From Dioscorea cayenensis subsp. rotundata (lineage: Eukaryota; Streptophyta; Magnoliopsida; Dioscoreales; Dioscoreaceae): 64,000 bases of DNA. The position numbers were made by a program, and so were the translations under genes. Location: positions 2,321,622 through 2,385,621 of the forward strand of contig NC_052489.1 of NCBI RefSeq assembly GCF_009730915.1. The letters are read 5' to 3'. The notes beneath the pieces are model-generated. The model worked only from the letters and a program-made list of their open reading frames with translations. It did not search any database and was not told the origin of the DNA. Below are positions 4,457 through 60,160 of this stretch, in pieces; within the stretch, counting starts at the first letter, position 1; each line of letters opens with the position of its first letter.

Positions 4457-4494
<38 letters not shown>

Positions 4495-19799: not shown

Positions 19800-19841
<42 letters not shown>

Positions 19842-20949: not shown

Positions 20950-20991
<42 letters not shown>

Positions 20992-21183: not shown

Positions 21184-23663
21184 ATGGATTCAGAGGAGTC
21201 AGTGGTGGTAATCACAGGGTGTTCTGATGGTGGTATAGGGCCATGCTCTTGCCCTAGCTTTTGCTGAGAAGAATTGCTTGGTTGTGGCCACTAGTAGGTC
21301 TTTCGAGTTCAATGAGGAGTCTTGAGGGTGATTCTAGGGTTTTTCTTCAAGAACTTGATGTTGTTTCAGAGGAGAGCATTAGGAAAGTGATTGAGACTGT
21401 TTTGGAGAAGTATGGCAGGGTTGATGTGCTTGTGAACAATGCTGGAATGCATTTGGTTGGACCTCTGGCTGAGATTCCAATGGCTTCTGTTGAGCAAGTG
21501 TTCAATACTAATGTCTATGGTAATGCCCTATTTCTTTGGTACTTTTATTTGTTTTCTTGTTAGTTAAAATCATATTCATGTTTTGATTTTGTTGAGATTG
21601 TGGTGTGAATTGTGGATAGGAATTGGTTGTATTTGTGTTGGTTGAAAAAACTTCAAATTTATTATCTTGTTGAGATGGGTGGCAATGGCATGAAATGTGA
21701 GAGAAGTTGGGGAAGAATAGTATTAGGGTTGCTTGAAGAACATTGAGTTGTATGATTTTGTTGCAACTGTGGTATGAATTGTGGATTGGAATTGGTGGTA
21801 TCAGGGTTAGTTGAAAAAACTTCAAATTTATGATCTTGTTGAGATGGGTGGCAATGGCATGAAGTGTGGGAGAAGTTGGGAAGAATAGTACTAGGGTTGC
21901 TTGAAGAACATTTAGTTGTATGATTTTGTTGAAATTGAGGTATGAATTGTGGATAGTAATTGGTGGTATTAGGGATTAGTTGAAAAAACTTTGAATTTAT
22001 GATTTTGTTGAGATGGGTGGCATGAAGTGTGAGAGAAATTGGGAAGAATAGTACTAGGGTTGCTTGAAGAACAGTGAGCTGTATGATTTTGTTGAAATTG
22101 TGGTATGAATTGTGGATAGGAATTGGTGGTATTAAGGTTAGTTGAAAAAACTTTGAATTTATGATTTTGTTGAGATGGGTGGCATGAAGTGTGAGAGAAA
22201 TTGGGAAGAGTAGTACTAGGTTTACTTGACAAGAACATTGAGCTGTGTAATTTTGTTGAAATTGCAGCATAAAGTGTTAGTAAAATTGGAAAGAATATTG
22301 AATCGTATGATTTCTGTGGTGTAAACTGTGACTGCGACTCTGCGAGGGTAGTTGGATAGAATGATGCCAGGGGTACTTGTTAGAGATTGAATTGTTTATG
22401 TTCTCCAACGCTGAGGCCTTTTTTTCTTAAATCGACTCAAAGAATAGAGTGGATTAGTTTAGGTTCTTTTGTAAAGTTTTGTGGAATATCGAATGAGTAG
22501 ATAATAAAAGTTTGTCCTCGAGCCAAATAAATAAAATTTTGAGTGAGCAAAATGATTGCTCTGATTCAAACACAAGAAAATTTTGTTTGTGGATCTTAAA
22601 TTTTCAGATGGCTGTTGTAGCGAAGAGGATATCTTTCTGTGGTGTTCTTGTTCATCAATATGGAATTTTCCAACCTATGTTAAATTATTTTTTATTCTAG
22701 TCTTTTTTAAATTCTGTTTTCAAGGTGTTAATTATGAATCCAATTACTTACCGCTTACTAGCCTCTTCTATTGTCATCAAATTAGACATCATAATTGTTC
22801 TTTATAAACCAGCACTGAATTTTTGCATTTCCTGAAGTCGATGCAGTGATATGAAACATTGAGAATCAAATACATGCAGTGATTTTGTTTTAGCACATTC
22901 CATTATGTGATAACTTTTGATTTCTCATCTATTTTGAGTATCCAAGATGATACACTCCGCTACATATTGCAGTTATTACAATCATATTGCATTCAAGTAA
23001 ATTGCATTGTATGATTCATCACCGGTGTCACCTACACGAACTCCTTTTTTTATATTTACTTTGATTGTCATTTTATCTTCAGGTTCTCTAAGATTAATTC
23101 AAGCTGTTTTCCCACACATGATGAGTAGAAGGAAGGGGAAGATAGTAAATGTTGGAAGTGTTGCCGCATTGGCTCCTGGACCATGGGCAGGTGTTTATTC
23201 AGCTTCAAAAGCTGCAGTTCATGCCTTATCTGATAGCTTGAGGTTTGTATGAGCACCTTAAAAGATTTTCGTGTTTCAATTCTCCGTCGAACAATTGGCT
23301 TGAATTTGAAAACACTTTTCTGGTGTTTGCAGAGTCGAGCTAAGTACTTACGGCATCAAGGTAATCAATGTGGCTCCAGGTGCTATTACATCGAACTTGG
23401 GGAATTCTTCGTTGACTAGATACGAGCAGATGCCTGAATGGAAGTACTTTAATCAGTTTGAGGCTGCTATGAGGAAAAGAACAACAATCTCTCAGGGCCC
23501 AAGATCTACACCAGCAGAAGAGTTTGCGAAAAAGACAGTGGTTGTTGTGCTTAAGAAAAATCCACCACCCTGGTTCTCTTATGGGCGTATATCCACAATA
23601 CTCGGCATTCTGTATTATCTTCCGCTCCGCGTCAGGGATTGGATTTATAGATTGGTTTTCTAG
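21184..23663 (+). CDS. Short-chain dehydrogenase/reductase (AYR1-like), frame broken by two +1 bases
   Basis: Three exons (21184-21519, 23083-23242, 23333-23663) encode a classical SDR of about 274 residues. It has the cofactor loop TGCSDGGIG (11-19), NNAG (84-87), catalytic Ser137 (NVGSVA) and YSASK (Tyr150, Lys154). The C-terminal stretch [18 protein letters not shown] is hydrophobic, suggesting membrane association. The closest family is the 1-acyldihydroxyacetone-phosphate reductase-like SDR group; the substrate is not deducible. As written, exon 1 is out of frame twice: one extra base in the GGGCC at 21238-21242, and one extra T at 21301-21303. Removing one base at each site restores both protein similarity and the intron phases. 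Either the assembly is wrong or this allele is inactive. It runs convergently to the CID gene, 368 bp between stop codons. Confidence 0.85.
21591..22265. repeat. Minisatellite in SDR intron 1, four to five copies of about 165 bp
   Basis: The marker GTTGAAATTGTGGTATGAATT (with variants) recurs at 21591, 21760, 21928, 22091 and 22255 (periods 169, 168, 163, 164). Each unit also contains GTTGAAAAAACTT, GAGATGGGTGGCA, GAGAGAA(G/A)TTGG and GGTT(G/T)(C/A)TTGA. The fifth copy decays. Because 168 is a multiple of three, the reverse strand shows a fortuitous open frame of about 200 codons that is not a gene. Confidence 0.9.
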
Positions 23664-24031
23664 AATTTTTATGAAAAGCTAAAAGTATCAGTATATGCAT
23701 CAACTCGGTGACTTTATTATTTCGCATTCTTATTGAAGGAGAAAGTTATATGTTTATGGAAAAAGTGTGATTTGATTAGTTATACTCCATGAATCTGTTG
23801 TTTGTTCTGCTGTTGCAATTGATAATGTATGGACTTAGTTCTTCACAATCAGAATCCAGTTTTTATGATTCTATGCAAAAATGTAAGAAAAAACTAGTAC
23901 AAGTACAACAGCAGGGCATTCTCAAAATCTTAAGCCAAGAAACCTGTCAGAATTATATAACTTTTTTCATTCAGCTCAATTCCGAACATTGTTTTGAAAT
24001 TGTATAGCATTGTAACAATGATACAGAGAAG

Positions 24032-26662
24032 TCACTGTGATTGGTGGTGGAAAAATTGCATGCCAGGAGGTTGGAGAGGTCTGTAACTTGGTGGTGCAGG
24101 TTGCTGGAGAGCAAGCTGTTGATTCATCGGCGGCATTGCAGGTTGCTGAAGAGCCATCGTGGGTGGCATTGCCGGTGGTTGCTGTATCATAGCCATGGGC
24201 TGCTGTGGAGGCATTGGCCCCGGTCTTGCCATGTTCAACATCTGGGGTGGTGGAGGTGGGGGAGGTAGGTTGCTGTAGGTATACGGAACACCGATCATGA
24301 CACCTCCGGTCGGTTGCAGATACTGCTGTGTTGAAGCTGGGTAGAGGTTATACGGAGGCTGGGGAGTCGAAGCTTGGTTCTGGATAGGCCCTTGTTGGAC
24401 TAAAACAGTTTGATGTTGAAGTGGGACGGAAACAAATGCCGGGGCGGCGGCTGAAGAGGGCAGAGGCTTCTCAAGGTTCACATTGACCCTGTCATGTGTA
24501 ACTTCAGATAAGGAACTGGATGCAATGGCCGTGTTCTTCGCCTCCTCCGCAGCGAAGGTGGAAAGCACTGATGTCATTATCTGCTGGGACCGGCTTGAAG
24601 CTGCAAGCTTGTCTGCAACTTCGGCTGCAATAGCAGCCGCTGTCTTTTTTGAAATCTCAGTGGCTGATGATCCCCTGGAATTTGTTTCCACAATTGGTTC
24701 ATTGTTGAGCCGCCGTCTCATGTTCGCTGCTTCATCTACCTGTGCCTGAGCCACCTGGCAAGCAAAGTTGTACACATTCAGGTTAGGAAGGGAAGGATAT
24801 TGACTTTTAACTCCAATTTGTTCATTTTGAGGCATTGTAGCATTCTGATATAACAACCACCTCCGCATCCTACGGTGGTAGAAAATAACTGAGGTGCAAC
24901 AAGCCATATAACACACCTGTAATTGAGTGCGGACGATCTCCAGTTCGGATTCCTGAACAACTTCATTGAGTGAGTAAGCAAAACTCCATGCACATCCATA
25001 ATCAAAATTCAAATGCGGAAGATATATCAAGCAAATCCATACTCATCTGCGTGCAAAATATTCATAATCTCAAACACGCATGAGAGGATCAGTAGAAATG
25101 TGATTTAACTCAAACCTGTTCCTGCAGCGCTGCTCTCAATTGAGAAATAAGGGCCACTCTATTTGATTCAAATGATTTAAGCTTCTCAATGCATGTTTTT
25201 AAGGTTGCCTCCTCCTCTTGCAATTCCTCCGTCAACCTCACCCTGCGAGGGTCTCCGTCTGAAAACGGATGCAGTACGGTGAAACAAATCTAAAGAGAAG
25301 AAGATCATAATGTACAATCACTAATACATATCATCTGAACATTCTAATCAGCAAGCTTCATAATGCTGTAGAATCATACACTTACCCTGCATGCAGGCAG
25401 CGGTGACATCCTTCTCCATCTTTCCCACCCGACGAACCGCCTCCTTTGCATTTACTCAAGTCGGAATCTTCAGCTGAGTGCTCACTTTGTACTGAGTGCA
25501 ATGCTGATATAATCTTTTCTGCCATTCCTCCAACAGACAATTTCTTATAACCAAAAGAGAGAACAAGCGTCAACAATCATACACATCTCAATTATCAATA
25601 AATGAAACATTAGAAAGCATTAGACCCTTACTAGTTTAATGGACCGTGAATCTCGTTTCATTATTCTTACAGAACGTGATCGTTTCTTATTCAATTCTAA
25701 AGCCGGTGGTGGCTCATTTCCGAGCATCAAATCTTTAAGACCCTTTGCATATGATCCAAATACTTTTCTTTCCTCCCAAATACCAACCTGCAATTGAGAA
25801 CACATGATGCCCAATAAGTTAAATGCTCAATATATTGCCATGGGCATAAAGTTAATCTTGCAAGTAAGAACTCTACAACATCGCCACATGCAAGTTTGCA
25901 GCAAACGGTACTTTCTTATCTCAACAGAGATAGTTGTGACAAGGCTTATCAAGAATTGTCAAATATTATTAAAACTATTGACAGAAAAAATATTAAGCAT
26001 TCATTTTTGTTGCATAAGTCAATATACTAACCAATCTCGAGACCACGTTTTTCCCACGATCATCCCCATTTTCCATGACATCCTTAAGTGCTCCAGGGAG
26101 AACTTTCCAAAACTCCCCAACAAATTCAGTTCCATTGCGTTTGCTGTTCTGTAAGATGTCATTGGCAACATACAGCAGCGGGATCTTTTGTTCCTTCTGT
26201 GAACTATGAAATGCCTTATCCCATGTCTGAACTACCTGTTCTGCCTTCTTTCGGTGGAATATGCACCAATGAGATAAAGCTATTGACAAATATAAGTTAA
26301 GGCACCAAGTTCAGATCAAGCTTGTCATACATATCATAAAAATAGCACAAGCACTAAAATTTACAGAAAGTGTGAATGAACCACCATGTCAATATTGTAG
26401 AAAATAAAATCTTAAAAAAGTTTAAAAAAAAATTACAATGAATCTAGAGAAGAACCAAAGTAAAAGCTAAAACAACATGCAAACTGTGAGGACAGAACTT
26501 CACAATAAAGATCTAGACAACCAACATGGAGCAAGATAATCATCTTAAAGCAAAATTTCATAGTCTCAGAACCATCCATTAAAGACATATTCTACAAAAA
26601 TACACTACTCATCAACAAAGAAAGAAAAACATAAAAGAACTCAACCAGAACTCTAAGAAAAC

Positions 26663-26708
<46 letters not shown>

Positions 26709-26890
26709 TTTTCAACACATGCTTATAAGATTAAGATTACCAATAATGATATTGAAGAACATCAAATCAGAATCAAAACAATACAAAAGCATAGAGAAAC
26801 ATTGAAAAAGATACTCTCAATGCACTGTTGTGTACTATTGAGCTTGGCGAGCTTGTCCGCGAGTACTTGCTCATTGAAAGCACTATTCAT
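24032..26890 (-). CDS. CID-domain (RPRD/Rtt103-like, ENTH/VHS family) pre-mRNA regulator, one +1 frame break
   Basis: Seven coding exons on the minus strand: 26890-26815, 26279-26032, 25787-25632, 25543-25386, 25258-25116, 24952-24917, 24754-24032; about 512 residues once corrected. The N-terminal CID (about 1-130) starts MNSAFNEQVLADKLAKLNST and includes LLYVANDILQNSKR and FWKVLPGALKDV. CIDs bind the phosphorylated C-terminal repeats of RNA polymerase II, so a nuclear role at 3' processing or termination is expected. A coiled region (TEELQEEEATLKTCIEKLK) and a long Pro/Gln-rich tail with PPPPPPP follow. In exon 4 the minus-strand AAA (plus 25445-25447) has one base too many. With it the frame reads KCKGGGSSGG; without it KCKEAVRRVGKMEKDV, the family sequence, and the exon 4/5 phase then fits. 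Confidence 0.88.
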
Positions 26891-28114
26891 CCCACCTCAA
26901 GATCAAAGAGACGATCCACTTTCTCTTTCACCGCAACAAAATTAACCTAAAAAATCAAACCAAAAGTAATTAAAAAAAGAGAAAACAAGAACCTTTAAAA
27001 AAAACTCAGCTTTTTATCTCCAAACTATAAAAAATTCAATATTTAATCCCTAAACCTAGACAAGATAGCAAAACCAACCTGAAAACAAGCAAAATGGAAA
27101 ACTCGAACATAACGACAAAGGATTTGCAGAAGATAAACCCTAAAAAGGCAAGGAAGGAGGAGATAATTAGCACAAACAGATGAATTTATCCAGCATTCAC
27201 CCCGAAAACCAAGAATTGAAAAAAAAGGGATCGGATCTGGGAATTAGGGTTTTGCGGTGATTAGGGTTTTTAAGGGAACTTGTGACCTTCCCCAGTTTGG
27301 TTCTTTGGTTTCACTATTTTTCGTATTTAGAAATAAATTTACAAAGTGGTCCCTTGAGAATGAGAATTTATATTTTAGTCTAATCTAGCCATTTGATCAT
27401 GCTTTGAGGACTTAAAAAATTACAAATAAAATTACAAATAAGTCCAATATAGGGAAATTTTTTTGAATTTTCTCATAATTTTATTTATGATATATGGAAA
27501 ATTTCTCCGCGTTTGCATACTTAAAATGCTGTTAAATGTTTGCATATTTATCTTATTTACTTTAAAAGTGTATTTATAATTGAAAAGAGATAGAAAAAAA
27601 TTAATTAAAAAAATTTTTTTTTCTTTTTAAGTTATTTTTTATTATTTTCTTGTCTTTATTATGTCACAAATCAAATAGATACATTATAAAAAAACCTTCC
27701 GGCATGTATTGAAATATTAACTCCTCAATTATATATATCCTCGAACAAAAGAGTGTTTATCGTCTATTTGTTAAGTAAATGTATATAAATAAATGCATGA
27801 AAGCGAGAGAGGATGCTGATAAGATTAAATCCATACAGATCTATACAGAATCTGAAATGATACCGCTTGAAGACATTCAAGATTCAAGAGGAGCTGGACT
27901 TTCTCTTATTTTATATATATAAATAAATATAAAAAATAAAAACATTCAAACAGTTAGTTGAACATACACACAAAAGATGTATGAATGATCTACACTGCAA
28001 AAACTAGCTAAGCTAAAGGCAAAGTTTTCTTTTTCTTCATTAACCTAAGGATAATTTTTAACCAACATTTTCATCTGAAGCTAACTTCAACTGAAGAGAA
28101 CTCGAGAAAGCCGA
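26891..28114. other. CID gene 5' flank and ACINUS-like 3' flank
   Basis: The upstream side of the CID gene has a leader, with a likely leader-intron acceptor just upstream of the start codon, then roughly 800 bp of A+T-rich DNA. The ACINUS-like gene's 3' untranslated region should lie just below 28115. No further coding sequence is visible. Confidence 0.5.
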
Positions 28115-31100
28115 CTATGATCTTCTTCGCTGCTTTTCCGCGGTAATCTTGGCTGCGACCTCTTCTTCAGATAAAGGCAGGTAATAGATCCTCGGAGTAG
28201 CCTTCGTCTTCCGGAAGAGATCATCGAGGGTCAAAAGGGGCGGTTCTGGTTCTGGTTCTGGTTTCTTTGGGATAACTGGAGGTTCTGGACGTGTATCGGT
28301 TTTAGCTGGCAGCGGAGACGGAAGGTGCAGCTTTGAGACATCTTGGCGTGGTTGAGATAGGAATGCCGGTTGTGTCTGAACCGGAGGGGCTGTTGGAGTG
28401 GATGGACTTGGGGCGACCGGTGATGGTAGCACTTGAGGGCCTTCGACACAAACTTTTACTTCTTGTGGATCAACAAAATCGGCCACCAGAAGACGTCCTC
28501 CGTTCGGGGGCCACTGAAGATTGTAAACAGCATTTCGAGTGGCTATGGCCTCCTCAACCGATGAGTACTAAATGAGAAGGATTCTTGTTAATATAACTGA
28601 TGATTTATACAACAAAAAGGACAGTTTACCATAAGTTTCCCTACAAATTTGACGAATATGATTAATATCATGAAATGCGGTTCATAACTTTTGTCAACAA
28701 TTTCGTTAATTAAGAAAGGCTTTTTCAACAATTTTGTGAATTAAAGAGACATGAAAACTTAAAAAACATTCTTCAGTCCTAAACATGAAAGAATGATAAA
28801 GCACAAAATACAGACATGCATATGTAATTGGAAATCAATATCATAGCATCATTCATATGAAATTACTTCAATTATTCTCTAGCAGAAATGAAAGAAAACA
28901 CATATTTTAGCATGACCATGCTGAATATAGGCTGAATGTAATTTCATGCCAGCTTTTTTCCCAAGTTCCATAACCAGTGCAAACTCATTTTGTAGAAAAT
29001 ATTACTCGAACAAAGTGGATTGATATGAATTGAGTTAGAAACATGATAACATCAACAAAATCGGTTACTAAATTAAACATAGTTTCCAACCCTTCCATTC
29101 AAAATCTCCAGAAGTGCACTCTAAAAATTCATGAAATTCAAAAGATTAGGGAAAAGAGAACACCTACAGTGACATAGCAGTGGGTCTTGATCTGGTCCAT
29201 CCAAAAATTGCAAATAGTTCCAGTTTTTCCAAGGAGTTCCTTCACCGCAGTGAGAGTAAAGGGCCGCAAAAATCGATCAATTCTCAAAGAATTGGTAGCA
29301 GTATTTTGTGACGGTGGTACTACAAGCCAAAATAAATAAATAAATAAATAAATAAATAAAAAGGAAAACTTTAAGTAACTAGACGATAAATAGGAAAAAT
29401 CTGTGAAATCTTGTTAATGAAAGCTTACCTATCCGTTCCTTCAGAGCCTCTCTGCTGACCGAGGAATCAGACCTATTAAATAAGCGCTTAGTACTTGGCT
29501 GAAATACATCTTTTGGTGTAGTTATTGGACTGATGTTGGATGGCTGCAGATCAGCAACCTTAATGCTCTCTGAGTTCCATCTTCGTTGTCGCTTTGGCGG
29601 GTTTGTGGCAGCAGATCCTTGGTTTTCTAAAATTTTAAAAAAAACACACACAAAGAAAGAAAACAAGGTTAAATTTTTTTTATGCCACAAAGAATATAGG
29701 GCTAATAGCAATCAGAACTTGATCTAAATCAAGGGGGAAGCAAGTAACTTGTAGAACAGATGGAAAAGATTGGTCTCATGCACAATACTTGTTCTAAGGA
29801 TTATCACTTCTTGACATTTATATGGTTGGGAATATGGGGAAAAACACTTGCAAGACAACTAAAAGGAATAATATTCAACTTGAGGTCATTTAGTTTATAT
29901 AGAACTATTGGATTTCTCATTGTTCCAGGAACTACTATGAATGTCTCATGTCATTACTAGCAAAGTTGATTGAAGTTTATGCTTAGGTTAAAATTATATC
30001 TAGTCTAGTGGTTATATATCAAGAGTAACTTAAAAAAGAGGATGAATGCTGTACTTCCACATAACAGAATGGAAAATAGAAGATGGCTAGAAAGACATGT
30101 ATGCCTTTCAAAGTGGCTTCAACATCAGGATCAAGACTAGAATATAAAGAGGATGACAAAAGTAAGCATCAAATTTTCATCCACTTCCCATTGTTTCAAT
30201 CACTACAACATTTACAATTAAGTCAAAACAAGGAGCAGCAAAAATTATGTAAACCAATAAAAAACTAGATGATCAAATATCGATGTAGAAAACATCTGCA
30301 AGATCTTTTAATTCTGAATAAGTCAATCACTGAACTTAAGAACTCAAAATGACGAATCCTTGATCAATAAATCCAAAAATCAATAAAAATCTCACATCTA
30401 CCTACAAAGACAAATTAACATAACACAAGACAACCGAACATATCTTTCTTTTATCAAAGTGAATCTGCATGTAAAGTCATCTAAGGGGTAACTTACCTCA
30501 TACATTGCTCATACTACAAAATTAGCAACTAAAACTTCCAATTGTAATAATCATCGTACCTTCCACTTTTCTTTTCTCAGTTGAAGCTGCGGGTTCACCA
30601 TTGTCATCAGCAATAGTGTCCTCCGCTGGTAGCATGGCAACATCAACAAGGTTTTCCGCTTTTCCAACTTGTGCTTTGATGTCCTCAATCTTTCCTCCCA
30701 GCTTGTCAGAATTATCATTAGACTCAATCTGCTTAGTTTCCAACACATCCTCATCCATTGAGTCATCACCAGAACTCCTGTCCAAGTTAAGCTTTTCTGG
30801 AGATTCCCCATCTACAATATCATTCTTCTTGCTAAGATCAGCATCTGTAACAGTCTTGACATCATCAACATCTACAAAAGAAACAGGTTTGTCATTCAGC
30901 TCTTGTACATCATCCACCATGCATGAACCACTGCCAACAGAATGATCATTGATGGATGGTGAAGGCAATGTCTCTGATTTAGCTTCCGGTTCTAAACTGG
31001 CATTATCAGCATTTAAACTATCCTTTAGTTCATCCTTTATATTGATTGACACAGAATCATTAGAACCAAATTCAGATTTTGCTGGACAATCTAAATCCTG

Positions 31101-31838
31101 GTTGATCTCAGATACCTTATTGTTTTGCTCCTGTGGTTCAAGCTTGACATCATGGGAATGGGGTTTTGAATCTTCATCCTGTTCAGCATATTTTAAGGTC
31201 TCTTCAGCAAGAGGCTTTGAATCCTCATCCATTTCATTGAATTGTGTAGCATCCTCACCAGGAGGCTTCAGGTTCTCATCCAATTTATCACACTTCAAGC
31301 TGTCTTCAGCAGAAAGCTTCAAGTCCTTCTCCCGTTCATTATACCCCAAATCATTGCCGCTTGAATCCATTTGTGTAATCAAGTTATGAGTCTCAGTTGC
31401 ACTGTGTTCTATGGTGAGTGCATTTGCAGCTGTACCATCTGGTGTCCCTTCCATTTCGGTGCCCACAGTTGAATCAACAGACTTATCCCCATAGTCTTGG
31501 TTAACATCTAAATCGACATCTTTCTTGTTAACCGGTGTGCAATCAGAAGCAGGTTTCATGTTCTCGTCTGCTATGACCTTTATATTATCCTCTGTCAATG
31601 GCTCAGCTATCTCTTCATCATGCTTATTGGCAGGATTGGATTCAGGTTCAGCACCAGCATATGCTTCATGTTCCTTCTCTAGTTCCCTCTCTCTCCGAAT
31701 AGCTTCAGCTAGTCGCTTTACTAAATCCTCCTTCACACCTTTTATTGTGATTTTTCTTCTCCGGAGCTCATCTTTTAATTCAACAACCTTCCACTGGTTG
31801 ATGGGTCGGTTATCAAGAATGGGATATTGTGTAGACAT
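28115..31838 (-). CDS. ACINUS-like SAP-domain protein (ASAP/PSAP splicing complex)
   Basis: Four coding exons on the minus strand (31838-30560, 29626-29429, 29319-29168, 28567-28115) give 693 residues without any frame break. The SAP domain lies at about 10-48 (INQWKVVELKDELRRRKITI, then DLVKRLAEAI). A long acidic, low-complexity linker (Asp/Glu/Ser, 60-420) and the basic stretch PPKRQRRWNS follow. An RRM-like fold begins near residue 500 (LRIDRFLRPFTLTAVKELLG, then FWMDQIKTHCYVTY and GGRLLVADFV). Near the C-terminus are a Pro-rich segment and the RSB-type motif LDDLFRKTKATPRIYYLPL. In plants and animals this motif binds RNPS1/SR45 and SAP18 in the ASAP complex, linked to splicing and gene silencing. 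A leader intron is visible at 31849-32334. The adjacent MIC60 locus recalls Arabidopsis At4g39680/At4g39690. Confidence 0.92.
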
Positions 31839-34392: not shown

Positions 34393-37300
34393 TCATTCAC
34401 TTTCTTCATTGCTTTCATCGCTGTCCTCCACCGTCAAATGATTCAAGTTCCGCTCGAGAGGCGGGAGTCCGTCTTCAGAGTCAACGTCGGACCCGTCATT
34501 GCAATTAGGCAGCTTCCCATCAATTACTGTTATTCAGCAAAAAAACAATATTTAGTTGAAGAATATTGAAAGACGGCTTCCATAAAAGGAATATAAGTTT
34601 ACCGTCCGCACAAGGAGTTGCCTTCGGAATTCTTGAGTTGCTTGACAGCCATTCATTTTGAACAGATATTATCTCGGAGCCATTCTCACAATTGGAGTAC
34701 GCCTTAAGAAGGTCTCTGCAAATTCAGGATTAAAAATGAAAATCAGAATGAACCCAAACTTTCCAATGCTTAAATCGTTAAGTTAAAATGGCACAAATCA
34801 TTGTGCCTATGCACTAAACATTGGATGGAACATTATTAATCCAACTAAAGATGATGAACATCTGGCTTTTAAGAACAACTATCGCGCTGCTTCTTGAGAC
34901 TATGGTTCAGAGCATCATCCAAGTTGAGCATATACCTGTTAAGAGACAAGAATGAATGACCCCACTTGAACTTGCCTAAAATTAGATTCGCAGTTTCCTC
35001 TTCCCCACTGAAAAAAAGATAACGAAACATTATCAATGTTGATATGAAGTTCTGAATGATTGAACATTCACAGAATAACTTCAAATGCTATACTTGAAAT
35101 TTGTTAGTTAGTCATATACTTTTAATAAATTTTATCTGAAAAGAGAAAATTATTTCAGCATTTGATTTGATTGTAGTAGCTAGAACAATGAATCATTAAC
35201 ACTTTTGTCCACCCAAAAAAAGGTTACTTGTAAACATACTGAATGCATGTAAAAGGGCAGATAGATCTTAGTACCATATTATCAAAGCTGCTGACAATGC
35301 TTCAACACAAGATAACTCACACGGTCGTCCATAGTTTACTGGGTTTGCAGCAACCAACCATGGCACTGGAATCCAATAGAGCTATATCAGTGAGATCTCT
35401 AGATAAACAAGTGTGCTTGTTATTCTACTTTATTAATATCTCAGGACAGGATATTTATTAATGTCACCGGATAATTGCTAAAGATCAAGGCAAAACAAGC
35501 AGATAGTACATAAGTCAGTAAAATGGCAACAATAATAATCCATGAATCAGCTAATATAGTGATAATCAGTTACTTGGTAGCCAAAATCTAGGCCCTTCTT
35601 TATCACACATTCACTGTTGCTAGAAGTGAGCATGAGAAATTCTATCCATTAACTACGTTGTCATGTTGCTAAATGTTTTGTATAATGGACACAAATGCAC
35701 GTAACGTTCAATACATAAGCTTGAGAGGAACAATGAACCATTCAAATTTGAATACAGGATAGGACAGCATTTTTGGAGTCTTAAACACCAAATCTAAGTC
35801 CCTGCTATTCAATTCCTCTTTGTAAGGGTAACAAAAGATAACAACGTCACTAGAAAAAAAAGAAAAAAGGCAACAGTAGAAGACAACTTGTTCAAAAGGA
35901 TTATTAGTTTTTGCATTAAAAAAGTGACAGTCAAGTTATATAGCTCTCGTTCTGCTGACTAACAAAAATATAGAAAAGCAGATGGAAAGACAAGTTTGGG
36001 ATTCTCACAGAGTCGAGGGGCAGCACAGCGAAGCTTCACAAAAGGGACATCATTGAGGCGTGCCCATGAGCAATCAACAACAGCAAGACCTTTTCTTTTG
36101 ATTAACAAATGATCATCCCTTTGAGATGCATTGAGTACCAACAGGGCTGCCAACATAAACAAAAGCCACCAAAAGGCATGTCGAAAGATGTTATCATGAG
36201 TCACTCCACAGCATGAATAGTACAACCATAAAAATTGACAGTACCAGTAACCTAATAAGTACAAGACAACTGATACTATAGGTAACTCTGATTATAGTAG
36301 AACTAAATCAGGTATAATTTAGCAAAATATATAAAAAAAGGTTTAGGTGGTTGCTTCCAGATATTCGACTGGGCTAAATTAATCCACAAAGGGACAAAGG
36401 TTATTGTTAACAAATAGCCTATTTGAACTCATACATCTAGTTTCACTATCGAGCTCCACATTCCTGCAAGCAGAGAAAGCTCGGTGTACTTCCACAGGAT
36501 AGACATTACTTGAAGAACCCTAAGTATTTGTGATAATTATTATTTTAATAAAAAATCTTTCTTCGCTAAATGGTGAAGTATGTCAAAAGTACCTTAATGC
36601 AATGCCCCCAAAGCCACTGGTCACCCGCAACTCCTGTAAGACCAATACACATATTAGTCATTATAATTGACGACAGGCAGTTAAAAAAAAAATATCAAGC
36701 TAGTCCAAATCAACACCATAGGCTAATAACAACTTATGATCTATAATAATTCACCCAAAAAATAGCAGTAGAATGCATTACTACAACCATAATGCTATGC
36801 TCTAATTTTACAAATTTTTGCATTGTTTCAAGTCCATCTATTTTGGAGTTATTTCAGCGGATGACATGAAAGAACACAGATACCATTATTTAAAAAAACA
36901 AATGTCAGCAAATGTGCTGAATAGAGGATCTTAGTCTTTGAAATTAAAAAAAAAAAAGCACAAATTTCATTAGAAACTTTCCTTCAAAAAGCCAAATCTT
37001 GATAGTTTACGTCCTGTGCACCTTTTCACATCGCAATGCCCAAAATCCTGAACCCACGAAAGAATATTTTACTGTAATGAGAACATAAGACATAATGTAT
37101 CATTCAGGCGTGTAAACATACCCACATTGCCAGCTGAATTTTTGGAACATGAGCTTCCTCGCTAGTTTCTCCTGGAAAAACAAAGGCTAAATTAATCATT
37201 ATAAGTTCCATCAAGCTTGAGCAGCCAAGTAACTGCTCCAACCCAACCAGCCTAGTAGCTATCAAAGCAAGTGGATTTTAGTGACAATCCCCGTGAAGCA

Positions 37301-38193
37301 AGTTGGCTGTCAAGATATGCCCAATCCTAAATTCTTCACCAGGGATTGTAGTACTGAGAAACAAGCAAAGCATTATACATAATATTCACTGAAAGTAATG
37401 CATGTTACAAGTTACAATTGTTCCCCCTACATGGGATACAAATAAGATTTTGAACTGAAAAAGAATAAACTAATGTCAAGATTAACCTCCACATAATTGT
37501 TGACAAACTAATTCTCAAGAAATAAGAATTTTCAGAAAAGGAAGCCAAATATCATTTCCTCAAATACAAATTTCTACACATATTATTGTTTTCCATCCCA
37601 AATCAAATATGCATTCAACTTTTTATGTAAAGCATTAATTCATATTGAAAGATTATGACAGATAACAAAAGAAAATGAATATGAAAATTTACCTTGATGA
37701 GTTGGTAGAGACTCCCCTTCATGATCAGCATCCCTAAGCAATCAAAAGTAAAAGGAATTAAAAGAGAGTTTTAAAAGAAGATTCAACCCAAACACAAGAA
37801 AACAATTTCCTTTCTATTTCACCTCAATCTAAAAACCCTTTAAATTTCAACAACAACACAAACTATCTCGCAATAACAACAACAAAAAAAAGTGCAGATT
37901 TTTAACATCAACCTAACAAGTATTGCTCAAATAAACCACATCAAATTCCCAATTTTAACAAGCTAAACTCCTCAAAACACATGAACATCGAAAAAATTTA
38001 ACAATTAACAACATAAAAAAACAACAATGAAAATCCCAAAGAAAAAAAAAATCAGAAAGTTATAAAAGGAAGGCAAGAGTAGTGAATCCAAGGCTATAGA
38101 AGCTCACAACTGGAATTCAAGTTTGCTTCCAGGCTTCCCCCGGCGAGAGACGGAGTTCCTCGGCCGGCGGCTCTTGTTATTGTGACCGCCCAT
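34393..38193 (-). CDS. TSR3: TSR3, 18S rRNA aminocarboxypropyltransferase, frame broken by one or two +1 bases
   Basis: Ten exons on the minus strand: 38193-38108, 37733-37693, 37171-37122, 37047-36978, 36633-36593, 36146-36009, 35365-35275, 35007-34936, 34715-34603, 34526-34393; about 277 residues when corrected. Family landmarks run in order: [98 protein letters not shown]; the tail is acidic. TSR3 transfers the aminocarboxypropyl group of S-adenosylmethionine to a methylated pseudouridine of 18S rRNA, late in cytoplasmic 40S maturation. Two frame problems occur. Exon 4 ends GAAA before the donor, where GAA would fit exon 5. Exon 6 has AAAGGG (plus strand about 36117-36122) with one base too many. 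It is divergent from MIC60 across 434 bp. Confidence 0.88.
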
Positions 38194-41600: not shown

Positions 41601-44600
41601 CGTATAATATTGCTAATTCATAAAATATGTTTTTCCTGTCATATTTGAAAATTGAAATTTTAGGTGAGAATAAGTGCCTTCCACAATTTTAAAAAGTCCT
41701 AGATAAAGGAGTGAAAATGGTTTATTTGACATTCTTTTGGTCAGATAGTCAGGAGACACCATTACAAAAATACTCATGTGTTTCTCTCTTATATGGTTCA
41801 AAATTGTTGTCTGCAGTCTGCTATATTCATGTTCTCTGTTAATGTGTATCACTCCAGGAGAAATATGAGAAGGACCTAAAGGATGCAAGAGCAAGGGAGC
41901 TTATGTATGCTGAAGAGGCAGCAATTTTGGATAAGGTTGAGAACTTTGTGAAACCATTGTTTTCTTGATATTCTTCTCTACTGTGATCAAGCTACCTTTC
42001 TGTACTGTTTTGTCCTTCATTCTGATATTTACTTCGATATAGTCATTGACATTATTTCTATCACCTTTTGCCTTTATTCATATAATTAAGCTGCAGTTAT
42101 CATTTGTCAACCAATTCGTTTTCATTAATAACATTCGTCTATACTGTGATCAAGCAACCGTTCCATACTGTTGTGCCCATTATTTGTATATTCACTTAGA
42201 CACAGTCATTACATTATTTTTTTCACCTTTTAATTAAGCTGCAGCTATTGTTTGCCAACCAATGTTTTTTTCATTGGCAACACTCTTCTCTAGGCATGTA
42301 GTGATCTTCTTGTGCTTCCTTTGATCTTAGTTTATTAACAGTTAGTTGTCTATAATGGATATGTACTAAAATTAGCTTGTGAAAAACATTATCAAAGAGT
42401 TATTACAGTATACATTTTGCATTGCTTGATGATGATTGTGTCATCATGTCATATTTACAAAAGCAAGTGCAGGATGTGGATTTGAGTTATGAGGCTTGGA
42501 TGATTATTTAACCACACAGAAATGCAAAAAATAAGTATCTGAAATATTTTTTTAAAGCACTCTTTCTGTTGAAGTTGGTTTAGCGATGTTAATTTTTCTA
42601 TGCTATGTTCTAGGAATTGAACAAAGAAAAAGCTAAGGCTGCGGCTACAATCAAGTTACTTGAAGAAAATGCTGAAAAACATCTTCGGGAGGAACTGCAA
42701 CATAAGGTCTTCTTTAGTTTTTTTTCTTTAACCAGCTTCCTTAATCTAGCCTGGTTATATTGTTTGTCTATTTTGAGTACAATTGAGTCACATCACATGG
42801 TTAACGTTTGGTGCCACAGGAGGAGGAAGCTCAAGAGCTGGTTCAGAAAGTTAAAGATTTGGCAAAAGCTGAATTAGCTGCCGCCATTGCAGCTGAAAAG
42901 TCATCCCAAATAGAAAGAATTGCTGAAGCAAACCTTAATGTATGCCATCTGCTGCCATGGCTTTAATAAGCTGATACTTAATCCTTTCATGCTGACATTT
43001 TATTATTATTTGTCACACCCCGCCGTCCCGCCCCCACCCCCCAAAAAAAGTCAATTTCATTTTGTATATAATCAATTGGATAATGTCTGATTGATTTTTG
43101 TAGATAAATGCGTTATGTATGGCTTTCTATGCAAGATCTGAAGAAGCCCGACAATCTCATTCTATTCACAAACTTGCTTTGGTAAATTCATTTTTCAATT
43201 TGAACTTTCTATGTTCAGCTTATATAAGAAATTCTAGCATTTTAATCCTCTTGAAAGCATCTTTGATTAAGGAGAATGTTTTGTATGTACCATACAGGGA
43301 ACCCTTGCTCTGGAAGATGCTTTGTCTCAAGGATTGCCTATTAGGGCTGAAATAGACGCATTGCATAAGTCTCTTGATGGCATTGATAGGGATTCATTGC
43401 TAAGTTTGGCACTTTCATCTCTTCCAGAAGAAATCTTAAGCTTTGGAACATACACCCAAATGCAATTAAATCAGAAGGTACGTCATTATGATTAGCAAAC
43501 TAGCTTTTTATGTACACATCATTAGTGCTCAGGGTAACCCATATGTATATTGTGTTTACTTTGTTACTGCTATTTGGTATCAACCATCAAAACTGTCATC
43601 TTTTATGGGTACTTAAATTTTCTTTATCTACATATGCACTGCATATCGGCATCACTTTTTTTTTGGGAGTGATTTCATCAGCATGATCGGCTACCTATCT
43701 AGCTAGATCTAGTTAGTAATCTTGGAATTATATCTTTTTCATATGGATCTAACACGAATGATTGAGGATAGTAGTGATGCAGACTGAAGCAAGATTTTTA
43801 CTTTTATAGCCTTTTAATTAATTTTATTTATGTTTTATTTTATTTATTTTAATTTTGTTTAATCTTAGGGGTCTCTTTGCATTCTAGGGGTTTTTAGGGT
43901 TTCCATTATTATAAATGCTTGTAACATTGAAGCAAGCAGGGAATGGAATAATTTTCCAAAAACAAGTTTTCTCATTCTATTGATCGGTGTATCCACTGCG
44001 TCAAGTAGTCATTCTGTGACTACATCTTAAAATGTTCGCTGCTGATCTCTTTTCGATGTTCAACTCCAGAATAACTAACTGGGACTAGTATGTTTTGTTT
44101 CACATGGTAGTTTATAGTTTATTGCTTGTCCGATAGTTGCTACATGGCCAACGTTAGTTGAAAACTATAATCAATCCTCGTCTTGCTTGCAAAATCCTTC
44201 TGTTGCAACTGAAATCTCTGGCAAATGACAACACTTCATGCATCTTCACATTATCCAACATAATAATAATATGATTCATTCACTTGCTAGTATTTGATTG
44301 TCATAGGATTCTGTCTTGCAGTTTGATTCCTTGAAAGGAACACTCCGCCATTTTAGCCTTATTCCAGCTGGTGGTGGTGGCATCCTTGCGCATACTGTGG
44401 CTCACATTGCATCCTCAATAAAGGTACAACAATAAAAATTAGTAACAATCATGATTTTCGAGGCTAGCCATACAACGTGGTTGACATTATTTTTCTCTTA
44501 ATTCTTTCATTGAAACCATCACCTTCTAAATTTAACCTGCCACTGTTTTGGCGGATCGCTTATACCCTTCATCTGAGAAAATGATCTGATGATTGTTTGC

Positions 44601-44946
44601 TCTGGTAGGACCTTGTGACCTCTGCACATACAATACTATAATTTATGAATTTGTGCTCTACCTTACTGTAAATGAAAAGATAACTTCCTGTTTTTATTTT
44701 CGAATTATTTTCCAGATGAAAGGGGGTGAAGATGGAGACAACATCGAATCACTCATTTGCAGAGTGGAGAAGTATCTACTAGATGGTAACCTCGCCGAAG
44801 CAGCGAATACCTTGGAAGTAGGAGTCCGTGGCAGTGAAGCAGAGGGTGCAGTCATTGAATGGGTGAGGCAAGCGAGGAATCGCGCGATTGCTGAGCAAGC
44901 TCTCGCGGTGCTTCAATCTTATGCCTCGTCCATAACCTTCTCATAA
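38628..44946 (+). CDS. MIC60: MICOS complex subunit MIC60 (mitofilin)
   Basis: Twelve exons (38628-38638, 38777-38831, 39372-40061, 40466-40597, 40731-40862, 41858-41935, 42614-42706, 42820-42939, 43104-43181, 43298-43477, 44322-44423, 44716-44946) give 633 residues without frame breaks. The N-terminus MLRRCIWELSSARSVHRRLT is an Arg-rich mitochondrial presequence. A single membrane span follows at about 65-84 (KLVLGTVVFGVALLAAYQTG). The middle is an acidic linker and then a long coiled coil (exons 5-8, e.g. KYEKDLKDARARELMYAEEA). The C-terminal mitofilin signature includes GGGGILAHTVAHIASSI and AEQALAVLQSYAS. MIC60 is the inner-membrane core of MICOS, shaping crista junctions and, in plants, affecting lipid transfer. 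Exons after the second are all in phase 0. The introns hold three tandem duplications and a solo LTR. The position beside the ACINUS-like and TSR3 genes recalls At4g39690. Confidence 0.95.
40945..41205. repeat. Tandem duplication in MIC60 intron 5, about 130-bp period
   Basis: ACCAGTCAGTTGCAGCTGCA at about 40948 recurs as ACCAGTCATTTGCAGCTGCA at 41078. Both copies continue through ATTGGCAACAA, TAGAACCTCT and AATGCTACAATGCATG with few differences, so the duplication is fairly recent. Confidence 0.9.
41415..41632. repeat. Second tandem duplication in MIC60 intron 5, about 110-bp period
   Basis: GAAAACTCAAG(G)TTATTGCC at about 41413 recurs at about 41524. Both copies share GTATTTTAC(A/G)GCAATTTATG and CTAATTCATAAAATAT. 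It is separate from the 130-bp duplication upstream in the same intron. Confidence 0.88.
41971..42300. repeat. Tandem duplication in MIC60 intron 6, about 163-bp period
   Basis: TACTGTGATCAAGC at 41979 recurs at 42142. Both copies contain TCATTGACATTATTT-like and AATTAAGCTGCAG(T/C)TAT blocks and CCAACCAAT. The copies differ more than those in intron 5. Confidence 0.8.
43775..44003. mobile_element. Solo LTR (229 bp) in MIC60 intron 10
   Basis: The segment begins TGATGCAG and ends CTGCGTCA, a 7 of 8 inverted match with the canonical TG...CA ends. It is bracketed by AGTAG at 43770-43774 and 44004-44008, a 5-bp target duplication. Inside are a TATAAATGC box and a TTGTAACATTG block typical of an LTR promoter and polyadenylation region. 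No gag or pol remains, so this is a solo LTR or a short TRIM-type relic, probably Copia-like given its size. Confidence 0.75.
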
Positions 44947-47069: not shown

Positions 47070-47114
<45 letters not shown>

Positions 47115-47697: not shown

Positions 47698-47733
<36 letters not shown>

Positions 47734-49340: not shown

Positions 49341-49349
49341 TATAAAAGG
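49341..49349 (+). promoter_or_regulatory. Probable TATA box of CSI1
   Basis: TATAAAAGG lies at the end of a short GC-rich stretch (49230-49330) that stands out from the A+T-rich intergenic DNA. A transcription start about 25-35 bp downstream would put a first leader exon at roughly 49370-49512, ending in the donor TTGCAG|GTTTAA. The coding exon at 50164 follows an intron. Confidence 0.6.
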
Positions 49350-50163
49350 CCAGCAAAAAACACTGAAAATTATCCCCAAAATTGGAAAAAAAAAAGAGAA
49401 AAAAATTCGAGAAATTCTCTCCGGAGCTACAGAGGAGAGAGATCTTCGGCCATTTTGTCCTAAAGATCTCCTCCCTCTTCTCTCTCTATCTCGTTTTCAC
49501 TCTGAATTGCAGGTTTAATTTGATTATAGGTTGGTGGTGTTGAAATTTTTTTTTTTTTTCGCATTTTTTGTTGTGTTTTTGGGTGGATTGATTTGGATTT
49601 GAGTTCAGGTTGATGATCTGGATGGGTTTGAGGATTCTAGATCAAATGCAGGGATTCATTTGTTGGATTTGTTTGATTTTGAGCTGTGATTTGAGAAATT
49701 CTGGGGCTTTTGAGTTTAATCGGTTGTTTTAGTCGGCATTTGATGGATTTTTGTTGAGTTGTTGGGGTTTTTATTTGTTCTGTTAGATCTGTGTTGAAAA
49801 GATTGTTCCTTTGGTGGTATAAGGGAGATGTGAGTGCTTATCGCTTCAGATCTGGACTTGGTTTGTCTATAGATTTTAGCGAAATGAATAAAGTTTTGAA
49901 CTTGAATTGTTTTTGGGGATCGAGAGCTTGATTAATCTATGTTTCGATGGGTCATTTGAAATTGCATGCATCTCACTTGTTTGATGAGCGAGTTCTTTCT
50001 TTGATTCTTGTGCTTTGGTTTGGTTGCATTTCTTTGATTTGGATTTGATGTAGATCTTAGAACTAGTTTGGTTTTCTTTGATTTGAAGTAGATTGGAGTG
50101 GAGAAGTTGACAACTTGAGATCCTTCTGGACTTCTAGGAGAGTATCATTGAATTGTAGCAAAG

Positions 50164-56100: not shown

Positions 56101-59100
56101 GCTCTGAGAGAGTCTAACGTTTGCAATCAACTTATTCATTCCCTAGTTGCTATGCTCAGTTCTACAAATCCATATCCTGAGGGTGAAAGCAAGATATGCA
56201 TATACAGACACCATAAAGAGCAACTTAGAAATGATGAGATTGAATGTAGCACTGCTGTGATCTCGGGTCACATAATCCCCATTTGGTTACTTTCTGTGCT
56301 TGCTTGTCATGATGACAAAAGTAAAATTGCAATATTGGAAGCTGGTGCAGTTGAGATTCTTACTGACAAGATCTCCCATTGTAGTTTCTTGGCTTCACAG
56401 GTACATGAAATTTCCTTTTGATGTTGAAATGTCATTTTATTGATCCTGGTCTAAAAATGTTATGTGCACATGATCCTACCAGAACTTTTTTTTTTGACCT
56501 AACTTTGTTTTTATTGTGTGCTTTTATTCATAATGCATTAGGCAAAGTTCTAATGGCCAATTTTGATGCTTCTACTGACTTCTGTAAATGTGTTCTGCAG
56601 AGTGATTCTAGGGAAGATAGTAGTGCGTGGGTCTCTGCTTTACTGCTTGCTGTTCTGTTTCAAGATAGAGATATCATCCGATCAAACGCAACCATGCGTA
56701 CCATTCCAGTACTATCGAATTTGTTGAGATCAGAGGAGTCAGCAGATAGATATTTTGCTGCTCAAGCATTAGCCAGCCTGGTCTGCAATGGAAGCAGAGG
56801 GACCCTGTTAGCTGTTTCTAATTCAGGAGCAGCTAGTGGGCTTATATCTTTGCTTGGTTGTGCTGACAGTGATATATCTGACCTTCTTAGTTTAGCAGAG
56901 GGGTTTCACTTGGTGCGCAATCCTGATCAAATTGCACTTGAAAGGTTATTCAGAGTAGATGACATTAGGGTTGGTGCAACTTCTCGGAAAGCCATTCCTG
57001 CGCTTGTCGATTTACTCAAACCAATCCCTGACCGACCAGGTGCACCTTTTCTAGCATTGGGTTTACTGACTCAACTAGCTGTAGATTGCCCATCAAACAT
57101 GCAAGTGATGGTGGAAGCTGGTGCGCTGGAGGGACTTACGAAGTATCTTTCACTTGGACCACAAGATGCCACTGAAGAAGCCACCACTGATCTGCTAGGT
57201 ATTCTGTTCAGCAGTGCCGAAATAAGACGTCATGATTCTGTGTTTGGTGCTGTTAATCAACTAGTTGCGGTCTTGCGTCTCGGAGGAAGAAATTCCAGGT
57301 ATAGTGCAGCCAAAGCATTGGAGAGCCTGTTTTCCTCGGAGCATATCAGAAATGCAGATTCTGCTCGGCAGGCTATCCAACCTTTGGTGGAAATTCTAAA
57401 CACTGGTTTGGAGAGAGAGCAGCATGCAGCTATTGCGGCATTGGTAAGGGTCTTGCGCGATAATCCATCAAGAGCGCTTGCTGTGGCAGATGTTGAAATG
57501 AACGCAGTAGATGTTCTTTGCCGTATTCTTTCCTCAAACTGTTCAGTGGACCTGAAGGGAGATGCAGCAGAGTTATGTTGTGTTCTTTTTGGAAACACAA
57601 GGATTCGGTCTACATTAGCTGCAGCACGTTGCGTGGAACCCCTGGTGTCACTGTTGATGACTGATTCTAGCCCTGCTCAGATCTCAGTTGTTTGTGCATT
57701 GGATAGGCTATTAGAGGATGAGCAGTTAGCGGAGCTAGTTGCAGCTCACGGTGCTGTTTCTCCCCTTGTTGGTCTTCTATCTGGTAAAAATTACACACTT
57801 CATGAGGCTGTATCTAGAGCTTTGGTGAAGTTAGGGAAAGACAGGCCAGCTTGCAAAATGGAAATGGTGAAAGCTGGGGTTATAGAAAGCCTTCTAAGTA
57901 TCCTCCGCGAGGCTCCTGATTTTCTCTGCGGTGCCATTGTTGACTTGTTCCGGATATTAACCAACAATGCTAACATTGCCAAGGGTCCGGCTGCAGCTAA
58001 AATTGTTGAGCCTCTCTTCGGGTTGCTTTCTAGACCAGAAATAGGTCCTGATGGACAGCACAGTGCATTGCAGGTTCTTATTAACATTTTGGAATATCCT
58101 GAGTGCCGAGCAGAGTATAGCCTTACACCACAGCTGGCTCTTGAACCAGTTATCTTTTTGCTTGATTCACCTACCCAAGCAGTACAACAATTGGCTGCGG
58201 AACTCCTGTCTTATCTGCTCTTAGTGGAACACCTACAGAAGGATGCAATCGTACAACAAGCAATTACTCCTCTTATTCAGGTTCTTGGTTCAGGTGTTCA
58301 TATTTTGCAGCACAGAGCTATCAAAGCCCTAGTTAACATCGCATCAGTTTGGCCAAATGCAGTAGCAAAAGAGGGTGGTGTTTACGAGCTATCCAAAGTG
58401 ATAATGCAAGCTGATCCGCCCCTACCTCATGCTTTGTGGGAATCTGCTGCTTCAATTTTATCCAGTGTACTTCAAAATAGCTCCGAGTTTTTCTTGGAAG
58501 TACCTGTGGCTGTACTTGTACAATTACTTCGCTCTGGAACAGAGGGTACTGTTGTTGGGGCGCTAAATGCCTTGCTTGTGCTGGAAAGCGACGATTCAAC
58601 GAGTGCAGAAGCAATGGCTGAGAGCGGTGCTATTGAGGCACTTTTGGATCTACTGAGGAATCATCATTGCGAGGAAACTGCAGCAAGACTGCTAGAAACA
58701 TTGCTGAATAATGTGAAAATCAGAGAAACAAAATCTGCTAAGGCTGCCATTTCACCATTATCGCTCTACCTTTTAGATCCTCAAACACAATCTCAGCAAG
58801 GAAGATTGCTGACAGCTCTTGCTCTTGGTGATCTTCTCCAGAACGAGGGTCTTTCTCGATCTACAGATGCTGTTTCAGCATGCAGGGCCTTGGTAAATCT
58901 TCTTGAAGATCAGCCCACTGAAGAAATGAAAGTGGTGGCAATATGTGCTCTGCAGAATCTTGTGATGTACAGTCGATCAAATAAAAGAGCAGTTGCAGAA
59001 GCTGGCGGAGTTCAAGTTGTTCTGGACCTTATCAGCTCAAGTGATCCCTGACACATCTGTCCAGGCAGCGATGTTTGTCAAACTTCTGTTCTCTAATCAT

Positions 59101-60160
59101 ACCATCCAAGAGTATGCCTCAAGTGAAACAGTGAGAGTTGTAACGGGTGAGTTCTCTCTTCGACATGTTATTATTGTTATGTTTCTTTGAAATATGACAT
59201 ACCAGCCTTAATATATTTAATGTGGCATTTTTTTTCGCAGCTGCTATTGAGAAGGACTTTGTGGGCCTCCGGAAGTGCGAATGAGGAGTACTTGAAAGCA
59301 TTAAATGCACTGCTCGGCAACTTTCCTCGATTGAGAGCCACCGAGCCTGCTACACTATGTATTCCTCATCTTGTCACATCCCTGAAAACTGGTTCTGAAG
59401 CAACCCAGGAAGCAGCATTGGATGCACTATTCCTCCTGAGACAAGCTTGGTCTGCATGCCCAGCTGAAGTTTCTAAAGCTCAATCTGTCGCGGCATCAGA
59501 GGCTATTCCTTTGTTGCAATACTTGATTCAGTCAGGGCCGCCTCGGTTCCAAGAAAAATCTGAGCTCCTTTTACAGTGTTTACCAGGTACATTGATGGTC
59601 ATAATAAAGCGAGGGAACAATTTGAAGCAGTCAGTGGGAAATCCTAGTGTTTACTGCAAGATCAAACTCGGCAATACGCCTCCAAGACAAACCAAGGTAA
59701 TGTACTATAATTACATGCAAATATAAGAAATCACACAATTCAACAATCTTATTCAGGCACTTCAACTACTGTTGCATGTTATTTCAGATTGTTTCAACTG
59801 GTCCTACACCCGAATGGGACGAAGGTTTTGCATGGGCATTTCGATGCACCTCCGAAAGGTCAAAAGCTTCACATATCATGCAAGAATAAGAGCAAGTTTG
59901 GCAAGGTAAAAGCCCGAAAGCCGGAATTCAATGCTCTACTTATTACTACTAGAGCAGAGTGTTTAAAATTCATTCTAATTTGTCTGGAACTGATTACATT
60001 TTACTGCTATTAACAACAGAGCTCATTCGGAAAGGTGACGATCCAGATTGATCGTGTTGTGATGTTAGGATCAGTAGCCGGAGAGTATACTCTACTGCCG
60101 GAAAGCAAAAGCGGAGTTTCTCGAAATTTGGAGATCGAATTCCAATGGTCAAACAAATAA
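50164..60160 (+). CDS. CSI1: CELLULOSE SYNTHASE INTERACTIVE 1 (armadillo-repeat and C2 protein), three +1 frame breaks
   Basis: Seven coding exons (50164-50229, 52380-52453, 53364-56400, 56601-59146, 59241-59696, 59788-59905, 60020-60160) encode about 2,144 residues, the usual CSI1 length. Short conserved N-terminal exons ([11 protein letters not shown], then [12 protein letters not shown]) lead into more than 20 armadillo repeats. A C-terminal C2 domain begins near [19 protein letters not shown] and ends [14 protein letters not shown]1/POM2 links plasma-membrane cellulose synthase complexes to cortical microtubules. The frame needs one base removed at CCC 59046-59048, TTT 59258-59260 and TTT 59839-59841; afterwards all exon phases agree. 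No in-frame ATG opens exon 1. CTG at 50164 is the homologous start position, with A at -3 and G at +4. The next in-frame Met is in exon 2. Exon 3 is very long and intact. Confidence 0.92.
51307..52084. mobile_element. Mutator-like element, 778 bp, in CSI1 intron 1
   Basis: Terminal inverted repeats of about 95 bp begin GAGTAATGCTATTCCATCC at both ends on opposite strands and stay similar through CATCCTTGTCACTAATG(A/G)CGTGG. The element is flanked by a perfect 9-bp duplication, AAGATAAAA, at 51298-51306 and 52085-52093. Long TIRs plus a 9-bp target duplication are diagnostic of Mutator-like elements. No transposase is present, so it is non-autonomous. The core is a minisatellite, annotated separately. 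Confidence 0.88.
51421..51865. repeat. Minisatellite core of the Mutator-like element, six copies of about 85 bp
   Basis: The phrase TCTCTCAAATCTCATGAAACC starts units whose TCAAAT (TCAAAA in the fourth) lies at 51421, 51511, 51595, 51664, 51751 and 51839 (spacing 90, 84, 69, 87, 88). Units share CTAGAA, GGGGATGGATCGCC-like and GCCGGC blocks. They are much richer in GC than the surrounding intron. Confidence 0.88.

What the first reader, a model, noticed from the sequence alone, without database searches (positions are those of the whole stretch)
21238..59841. All frame breaks in this window are +1 insertions, nearly all at short homopolymers
Comparing each exon with its family pattern shows single extra bases at 21238-21242 (GGGCC), 21301-21303 (TTT), 25445-25447 (TTT), 36117-36122 (CCCTTT), 59046-59048 (CCC), 59258-59260 (TTT) and 59839-59841 (TTT), probably also 36978-36980 (TTT) and near 4224. 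None is a deletion and none is a substitution-made stop. In four clear cases the exon phase arithmetic works only after removing exactly one base per site. A one-sided pattern in unrelated conserved genes points to residual insertion errors of a long-read assembly rather than independent pseudogenes. Other long coding genes (MIC60, ACINUS-like, F-box, MUB) are clean.
Basis: partly seen in the sequence, partly recalled or inferred. Interest (0 to 1): 0.7.

Follow-up and report, generated by a model that had tools for sequence, protein, structure and literature searches.

The report
Assembly errors breaking plant gene frames
Several ordinary plant genes here look broken by single extra letters, and the surrounding sequence suggests that these are uncorrected mistakes of the genome assembly rather than real mutations.

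Summary
The window is plant nuclear DNA from a 584 Mb assembly. I modelled nine genes (15,762 bp of coding sequence): five clean, four broken. With one base fewer per site the four genes have no inner stop and all exon phases fit. The two 'probable' sites are not established: 36978-36980 fits a substitution in a splice donor at least as well, and the one near 4224 is ambiguous.

Assembly error is well supported, but not through strict one-sidedness. The window lies in one 78.7 kb contig between two 1000-N gaps. A PPR gene at that contig's left end, outside the window, has about seven breaks in 0.75 kb: five insertions and two deletions. Two neighbouring contigs are redundant copies of one locus; over 4.8 kb they differ by 12 substitutions but 33 one-base indels. 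In 27 PPR genes elsewhere I found two breaks. The window's coding error rate corresponds to about Q33.5.

Most likely this is patchy, poorly polished consensus with a bias to insertions. No reads could be mapped, so it is not proven. It is an artefact of a known kind, of low biological interest.

The parts
21184..23663 (+). Short-chain dehydrogenase gene, 3 exons (21184-21519, 23083-23242, 23333-23663), two +1 breaks in exon 1
   Evidence: PF00106 E 2e-52 for the read-through; PDB relatives
21238..21242 (+). +1 break, GGGCC (extra G or C)
21301..21303 (+). +1 break, TTT
24032..26890 (-). CID/RPRD-like gene, 7 exons, one +1 break in exon 4
   Evidence: RPRD1A/1B CID relatives
25443..25447 (-). 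+1 break, AAAGG on the coding strand (extra A or G)
34393..37733 (-). TSR3-like gene, 9 exons modelled (5' start not modelled), one +1 break and one abnormal splice donor
   Evidence: PDB TSR3 5ap8, 5apg; Fer4_RLI and Ribo_biogen_C
36117..36122 (-). +1 break, AAAGGG on the coding strand
36978..36981 (-). Uncertain site: splice donor reads GA instead of GT (AAG|gaaagt); a substitution or a +1 both give the same protein, with different splice sites
   Evidence: the only one of 36 modelled introns that is not GT-AG
4224..4234 (+). Uncertain site in a MADS-box gene; exon structure ambiguous, +1 not established
   Evidence: by eye; MADS domain by PF00319
52380..60160 (+). CSI1-like gene, 6 exons modelled (5' end not modelled), three +1 breaks in the last 800 bp
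   Evidence: C2 domain
59046..59048 (+). +1 break, CCC
59258..59260 (+). +1 break, TTT
59839..59841 (+). +1 break, TTT, inside the C2 domain
38628..44946 (+). MIC60-like gene, 12 exons, no break (control)
28115..31838 (-). ACINUS-like SAP gene, 4 exons, no break (control)
10759..12207 (-). F-box/Kelch-like gene, one exon, no break (control)

Best explanation
The seven breaks are residual one-base consensus errors of a patchily polished assembly. The window is most of one short contig (78.7 kb) in a stretch of short, gap-separated contigs, part of which was assembled twice. Where reads were few or mapped ambiguously, polishing failed, leaving one-base indels, mostly extra bases in short runs. 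In the plant the four genes (SDR, CID/RPRD-like, TSR3, CSI1-like) are most likely intact. Shown here: the +1 breaks, the contig bounds, the worse contig end, and the indel excess between redundant copies. Inferred: the cause (failed polishing), the platform, and that the plant lacks the extra bases.
For: All four broken genes become fully open with correct phases after one base less per site, and 35 of 36 modelled introns are GT-AG. The contig is bounded by exactly 1000 N at both ends. A PPR gene at its left end carries 5 insertions and 2 deletions within about 0.75 kb, and its read-through is a full PPR array, PF01535 E 4.5e-84. Contigs C19:2226930-2314248 and 2394962-2412075 hold one locus twice, inverted, with 255 substitutions and 72 one-base indels; 4.8 kb of it has 12 substitutions and 33 one-base indels (stretch chosen after seeing the data). 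Of 27 PPR genes elsewhere (about 53 kb of open frame) I found two breaks, so the window is enriched (p = 0.0007; control not matched). About Q33.5 in coding sequence, inside the Q30-35 that passages of PMC8081667 give for long-read contigs before polishing; the same passages describe a locus left unpolished because its other haplotype drew the reads, giving frameshifts.
Against: No reads or transcripts were available. Passages of PMC12007338 report mostly false deletions in one of its long-read bacterial assemblies (1708 against 900 insertions), so the insertion bias is not explained by a generic rule. The ATP synthase delta coding exon is free of indels in both redundant copies, as selection on real alleles would also give. 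The 72 indels cannot be polarised (longer in one copy 33, in the other 39). No second copy of the SDR or CSI1 breaks is in the assembly, so split mapping is not shown for the window itself.
Confidence: 0.92

Rival explanations
1. The breaks are real: one haplotype of the plant carries four independent pseudogenes.
For: The sequence as given; a plant may be heterozygous, and mTERF and PPR neighbours belong to families with many copies.
Against: Seven frame breaks but none of the decay that should accompany them: no inner stop remains outside the shifts and 35 of 36 introns keep GT-AG. The SDR and CSI1 3' queries find no other close copy in the assembly (best other match 71% over 311 bases), so loss would leave none. 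Error-like indels abound in neighbouring non-coding DNA.
Confidence: 0.06
2. Programmed +1 frameshifting lets the plant read through these sites.
For: All seven are +1 and sit in short runs.
Against: No shared slippery motif or stop context among the seven (one search prints them); the same kind of break occurs in unrelated genes and together with deletions at the contig end; close homopolymer indels also occur in non-coding DNA. No case in plant nuclear genes is known to me (recall, not searched).
Confidence: 0.01
3. The errors come from a real duplication: reads of a close paralogue were collapsed into this consensus.
For: A redundant locus exists beside the window.
Against: Only self and a 71% match for the CSI1 3' end, and only self for the SDR exon.
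Confidence: 0.02

Closest known systems
Frameshift-causing indels of unpolished long-read contigs (VGP assemblies, PMC8081667, passages seen)
   Same: Short indels from consensus calling that break frames; error rate near Q33; patchy loss of polishing where haplotypes are both present
   Different: Insertion-biased in coding sequence here; platform unknown; no reads examined
Gene-fragmenting errors in long-read assemblies (Kastor, PMC12007338, passages seen)
   Same: One-base indels at homopolymers breaking conserved genes, found by comparison with relatives
   Different: In one assembly quoted there deletions outnumber insertions; here accepted breaks are 18 insertions and 3 deletions
Unitary or recent pseudogenes
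   Same: Conserved genes with disrupted frames
   Different: No other decay, several breaks in one gene, and the same indels in neighbouring redundant non-coding DNA

Membership tests
Residual assembly (consensus) error | Frame breaks are single-base indels in otherwise intact conserved genes | tested here: met
   seven one-base events, no other inner stop in nine models
Residual assembly (consensus) error | One-base indels out of proportion to substitutions between redundant copies | tested here: met
   33 against 12 over 4.8 kb (stretch chosen after the fact; whole overlap 72 against 255); tested on neighbouring contigs, not on the window's own
Residual assembly (consensus) error | Errors vary between contigs and rise near contig ends | tested here: inconclusive
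   One contig end is dense in breaks and a sample elsewhere sparse, but the other end holds no gene that I examined and contigs were not sampled systematically
Residual assembly (consensus) error | Reads of the same accession lack the extra base | not testable with these tools
   no reads available
Insertion-only error profile | No deletions | tested here: not met
   two deletions in the PPR gene of the same contig, one in a DYW-PPR fragment at C19:2289802
Pseudogene | Loss of constraint: extra stops, splice-site decay | tested here: not met
   one abnormal donor in 36 introns; no stops other than those made by the shifts
Programmed +1 frameshifting | Common slippery site | tested here: not met
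   the seven contexts share only a run of three

The most novel reading that the evidence does not exclude
The extra bases are real and arose in one burst of insertion-biased replication slippage in this haplotype, hitting four conserved genes along 40 kb and the neighbouring contigs; the plant would then be living on the other allele.
Probability: 0.03. Interest if true: 0.75.

Novelty: not a real feature. Interest (0 to 1): 0.12.

Why it matters
The window is a practical warning: four conserved genes, among them a CSI1-like gene and TSR3, would be annotated as truncated, split or lost in this assembly, and gene-loss claims based on it would be wrong. It also shows that error rates differ strongly between contigs of one pseudo-chromosome, so a genome-wide quality figure hides such patches.

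Tried and rejected
Tandem repeats inside the window as a yardstick for indels against substitutions: copies too diverged and gaps placed arbitrarily; not used.

A first frame-switch scan over the window found none of the seven, because the pieces between breaks and introns are too short; the scan is insensitive for intron-rich genes. Its flank output gave seven +1 events and no -1, but several were antisense or low-complexity, and the recursion let codons overlap, so I rewrote it. The rewritten scan listed 30 candidates in the 200 kb of flanks: I accepted 5 (4 insertions, 1 deletion) as lying in recognisable plant proteins and dropped 25 (10 insertions, 15 deletions) as mobile-element, antisense, low-complexity or untranslated sequence. 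The choice was by eye. Pfam supports the pieces of the mTERF breaks only in part and does not support the metallophosphatase-like one (C19:2450152) at all.

In the PPR sample the scan also called sense-strand events in L023, L024 and L026 (one of them a deletion); I dropped them because they lie before or at the likely start codon. L028 has a PPR frame interrupted by a longer non-coding stretch, not counted. PPR genes were chosen as the best-scoring hits, so the sample is not random.

Clustering of the seven sites on the coding sequence: p = 0.064, with a distance cut chosen after seeing them. SNP and indel density between the redundant copies are not correlated (Spearman 0.13, p = 0.28).

Species: size 584,211,761 bp with a 31.6 Mb pseudo-chromosome made me think of white Guinea yam, Dioscorea rotundata v2; the match of the total size is recall, untested. 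Passages of PMC9010478 and PMC13128126 concern that genome; neither states its indel errors in what I saw. Papers seen only as passages: PMC12007338, PMC6529160, PMC6418295, PMC13128126, PMC9010478, PMC8081667, PMC6169393; all others only as search listings.

A genome-wide test of break direction by family searches (GRAS, BAHD transferases, glycosyltransferases) did not complete.

Full report
What the window is. Plant nuclear DNA, 33.6% G+C, no N; it is C19:2321622-2385621 of a genome of 584,211,761 bases in 2,249 contigs; C19 is 31.6 Mb. Rfam gives no match at gathering threshold.

The observation. I built exon models for nine genes: MUB-like (partial), F-box/Kelch-like, an unnamed single-exon gene at 18293, SDR, CID/RPRD-like, ACINUS-like, TSR3, MIC60-like and CSI1-like, in all 15,762 bp. 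Several names (MUB, ACINUS, MIC60, CSI1, F-box/Kelch) are recalled from the look of the proteins and come from no call; SDR, CID/RPRD, TSR3, the C2 domain and the MADS domain have database support. Five models have no inner stop as they stand. 35 of 36 modelled introns are GT-AG. The direction (+1) follows from the change of frame; a loss of two bases would give the same frame but add a residue, and the profile alignments at SDR, TSR3 and the C2 domain show no such missing residue, apart from a gap of one or two residues at the second SDR break in one of three chains shown. The exact base is ambiguous at 21238 and 25445.

The two uncertain sites. At 36978-36980 the TSR3 model with the best acceptor has a donor that reads GA; one substitution there would give a canonical donor, while a +1 would move both splice sites. 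The protein is the same either way, so this site cannot be counted as an insertion, and 'no substitution' is not established. Near 4224 a tiny preceding exon can be placed in more than one way, and the family length does not clearly favour a +1.

Context. Exactly 1000 N stand at C19:2314249-2315248 and 2393962-2394961, so the window is 64.0 of 78.7 kb of one contig; neighbours are 87.3 and 17.1 kb. At the left end of the same contig a plus-700-residue-type PPR gene on the minus strand (566 residues before the gap, read through) has seven breaks between about 2316.1 and 2315.4 kb: two deletions and five insertions. Two of its apparent -1 to +2 changes could be read either way; I chose the reading that keeps the PPR spacing, and Pfam finds eight PPR stretches over the read-through. 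In the 200 kb of flanks I accepted three +1 breaks in mTERF-like genes, one +1 in a metallophosphatase-like gene (no Pfam support) and one -1 in a DYW-PPR fragment, whose DYW profile continues 1-38 and 40-93 across the break.

Redundant copies. Contigs at 2226930-2314248 and 2394962-2412075 hold one locus twice in opposite orientation. Over about 14.3 kb they differ by 255 substitutions and 72 one-base indels. In the 4.8 kb from 16,600 to 21,400 of the first contig there are 12 substitutions and 33 one-base indels. Real alleles should show far more substitutions than one-base indels (general knowledge, not tested here), so most of these indels are probably errors in one copy or the other. Which copy is longer is even (33 and 39), so these do not speak to insertion bias. 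The only clear gene there, ATP synthase delta, is intact in both, which is a result against a uniform error rate or for selection.

Sample elsewhere. Thirty PPR loci, 27 distinct genes with 17,719 residues of open frame (my sum), gave two breaks, both +1: L025/L033, at an AAA run, and L038, on an unplaced contig. The window is denser (7 in 15.75 kb against 2 in 53.2 kb, p = 0.0007), though the sample was picked by hit score.

Direction overall. Window 7 insertions to 0; outside 11 to 3; together 18 to 3, p = 0.0015. The bias is real for accepted breaks but not exclusive; the candidates that I dropped were 10 to 15, so the scan itself does not favour insertions.

Interpretation. About Q33.5 in coding sequence is what a paper gives for long-read contigs before polishing (Q30-35), and the same paper shows a locus left unpolished because its other haplotype took the reads, with frameshifts in a gene (PMC8081667, passages). 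That fits a region where a locus is present twice. It is not shown for the window itself: its SDR exon and CSI1 end occur once in the assembly, unless a haplotig was purged after polishing. The insertion bias does not identify a platform; in one assembly of PMC12007338 deletions prevail.

Verdict. An artefact of a known kind, with a good first reading; interest is low.

Noticed in passing
C19:2226930-2314248 and 2394962-2412075 (outside the window): One locus of about 14-15 kb is assembled twice in inverted orientation on both sides of the window's contig, probably two haplotypes both kept in the pseudo-chromosome.
   Followed up: yes
window 21541-22264: The first SDR intron holds four tandem copies of a 163-169 bp unit.
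   Followed up: no
window 36978-36981: TSR3 intron with a GA donor in an otherwise canonical site.
   Followed up: partly
window 6900-8439, minus strand: MUB-like ubiquitin-fold gene whose visible last exon ends in KICMAFV, without the C-terminal CaaX box that I recall for the family.
   Followed up: no
window 3684-5280: Short MADS-box gene with very small exons; could be a real divergent gene or a decaying one.
   Followed up: partly
C19:2263300-2284400: Cluster of mTERF-like genes, some intact and at least two with +1 breaks.
   Followed up: partly
contigs B and D: One-base indels between the redundant copies peak at run lengths 1 and 4-5 and are nearly absent at 6 or more.
   Followed up: no
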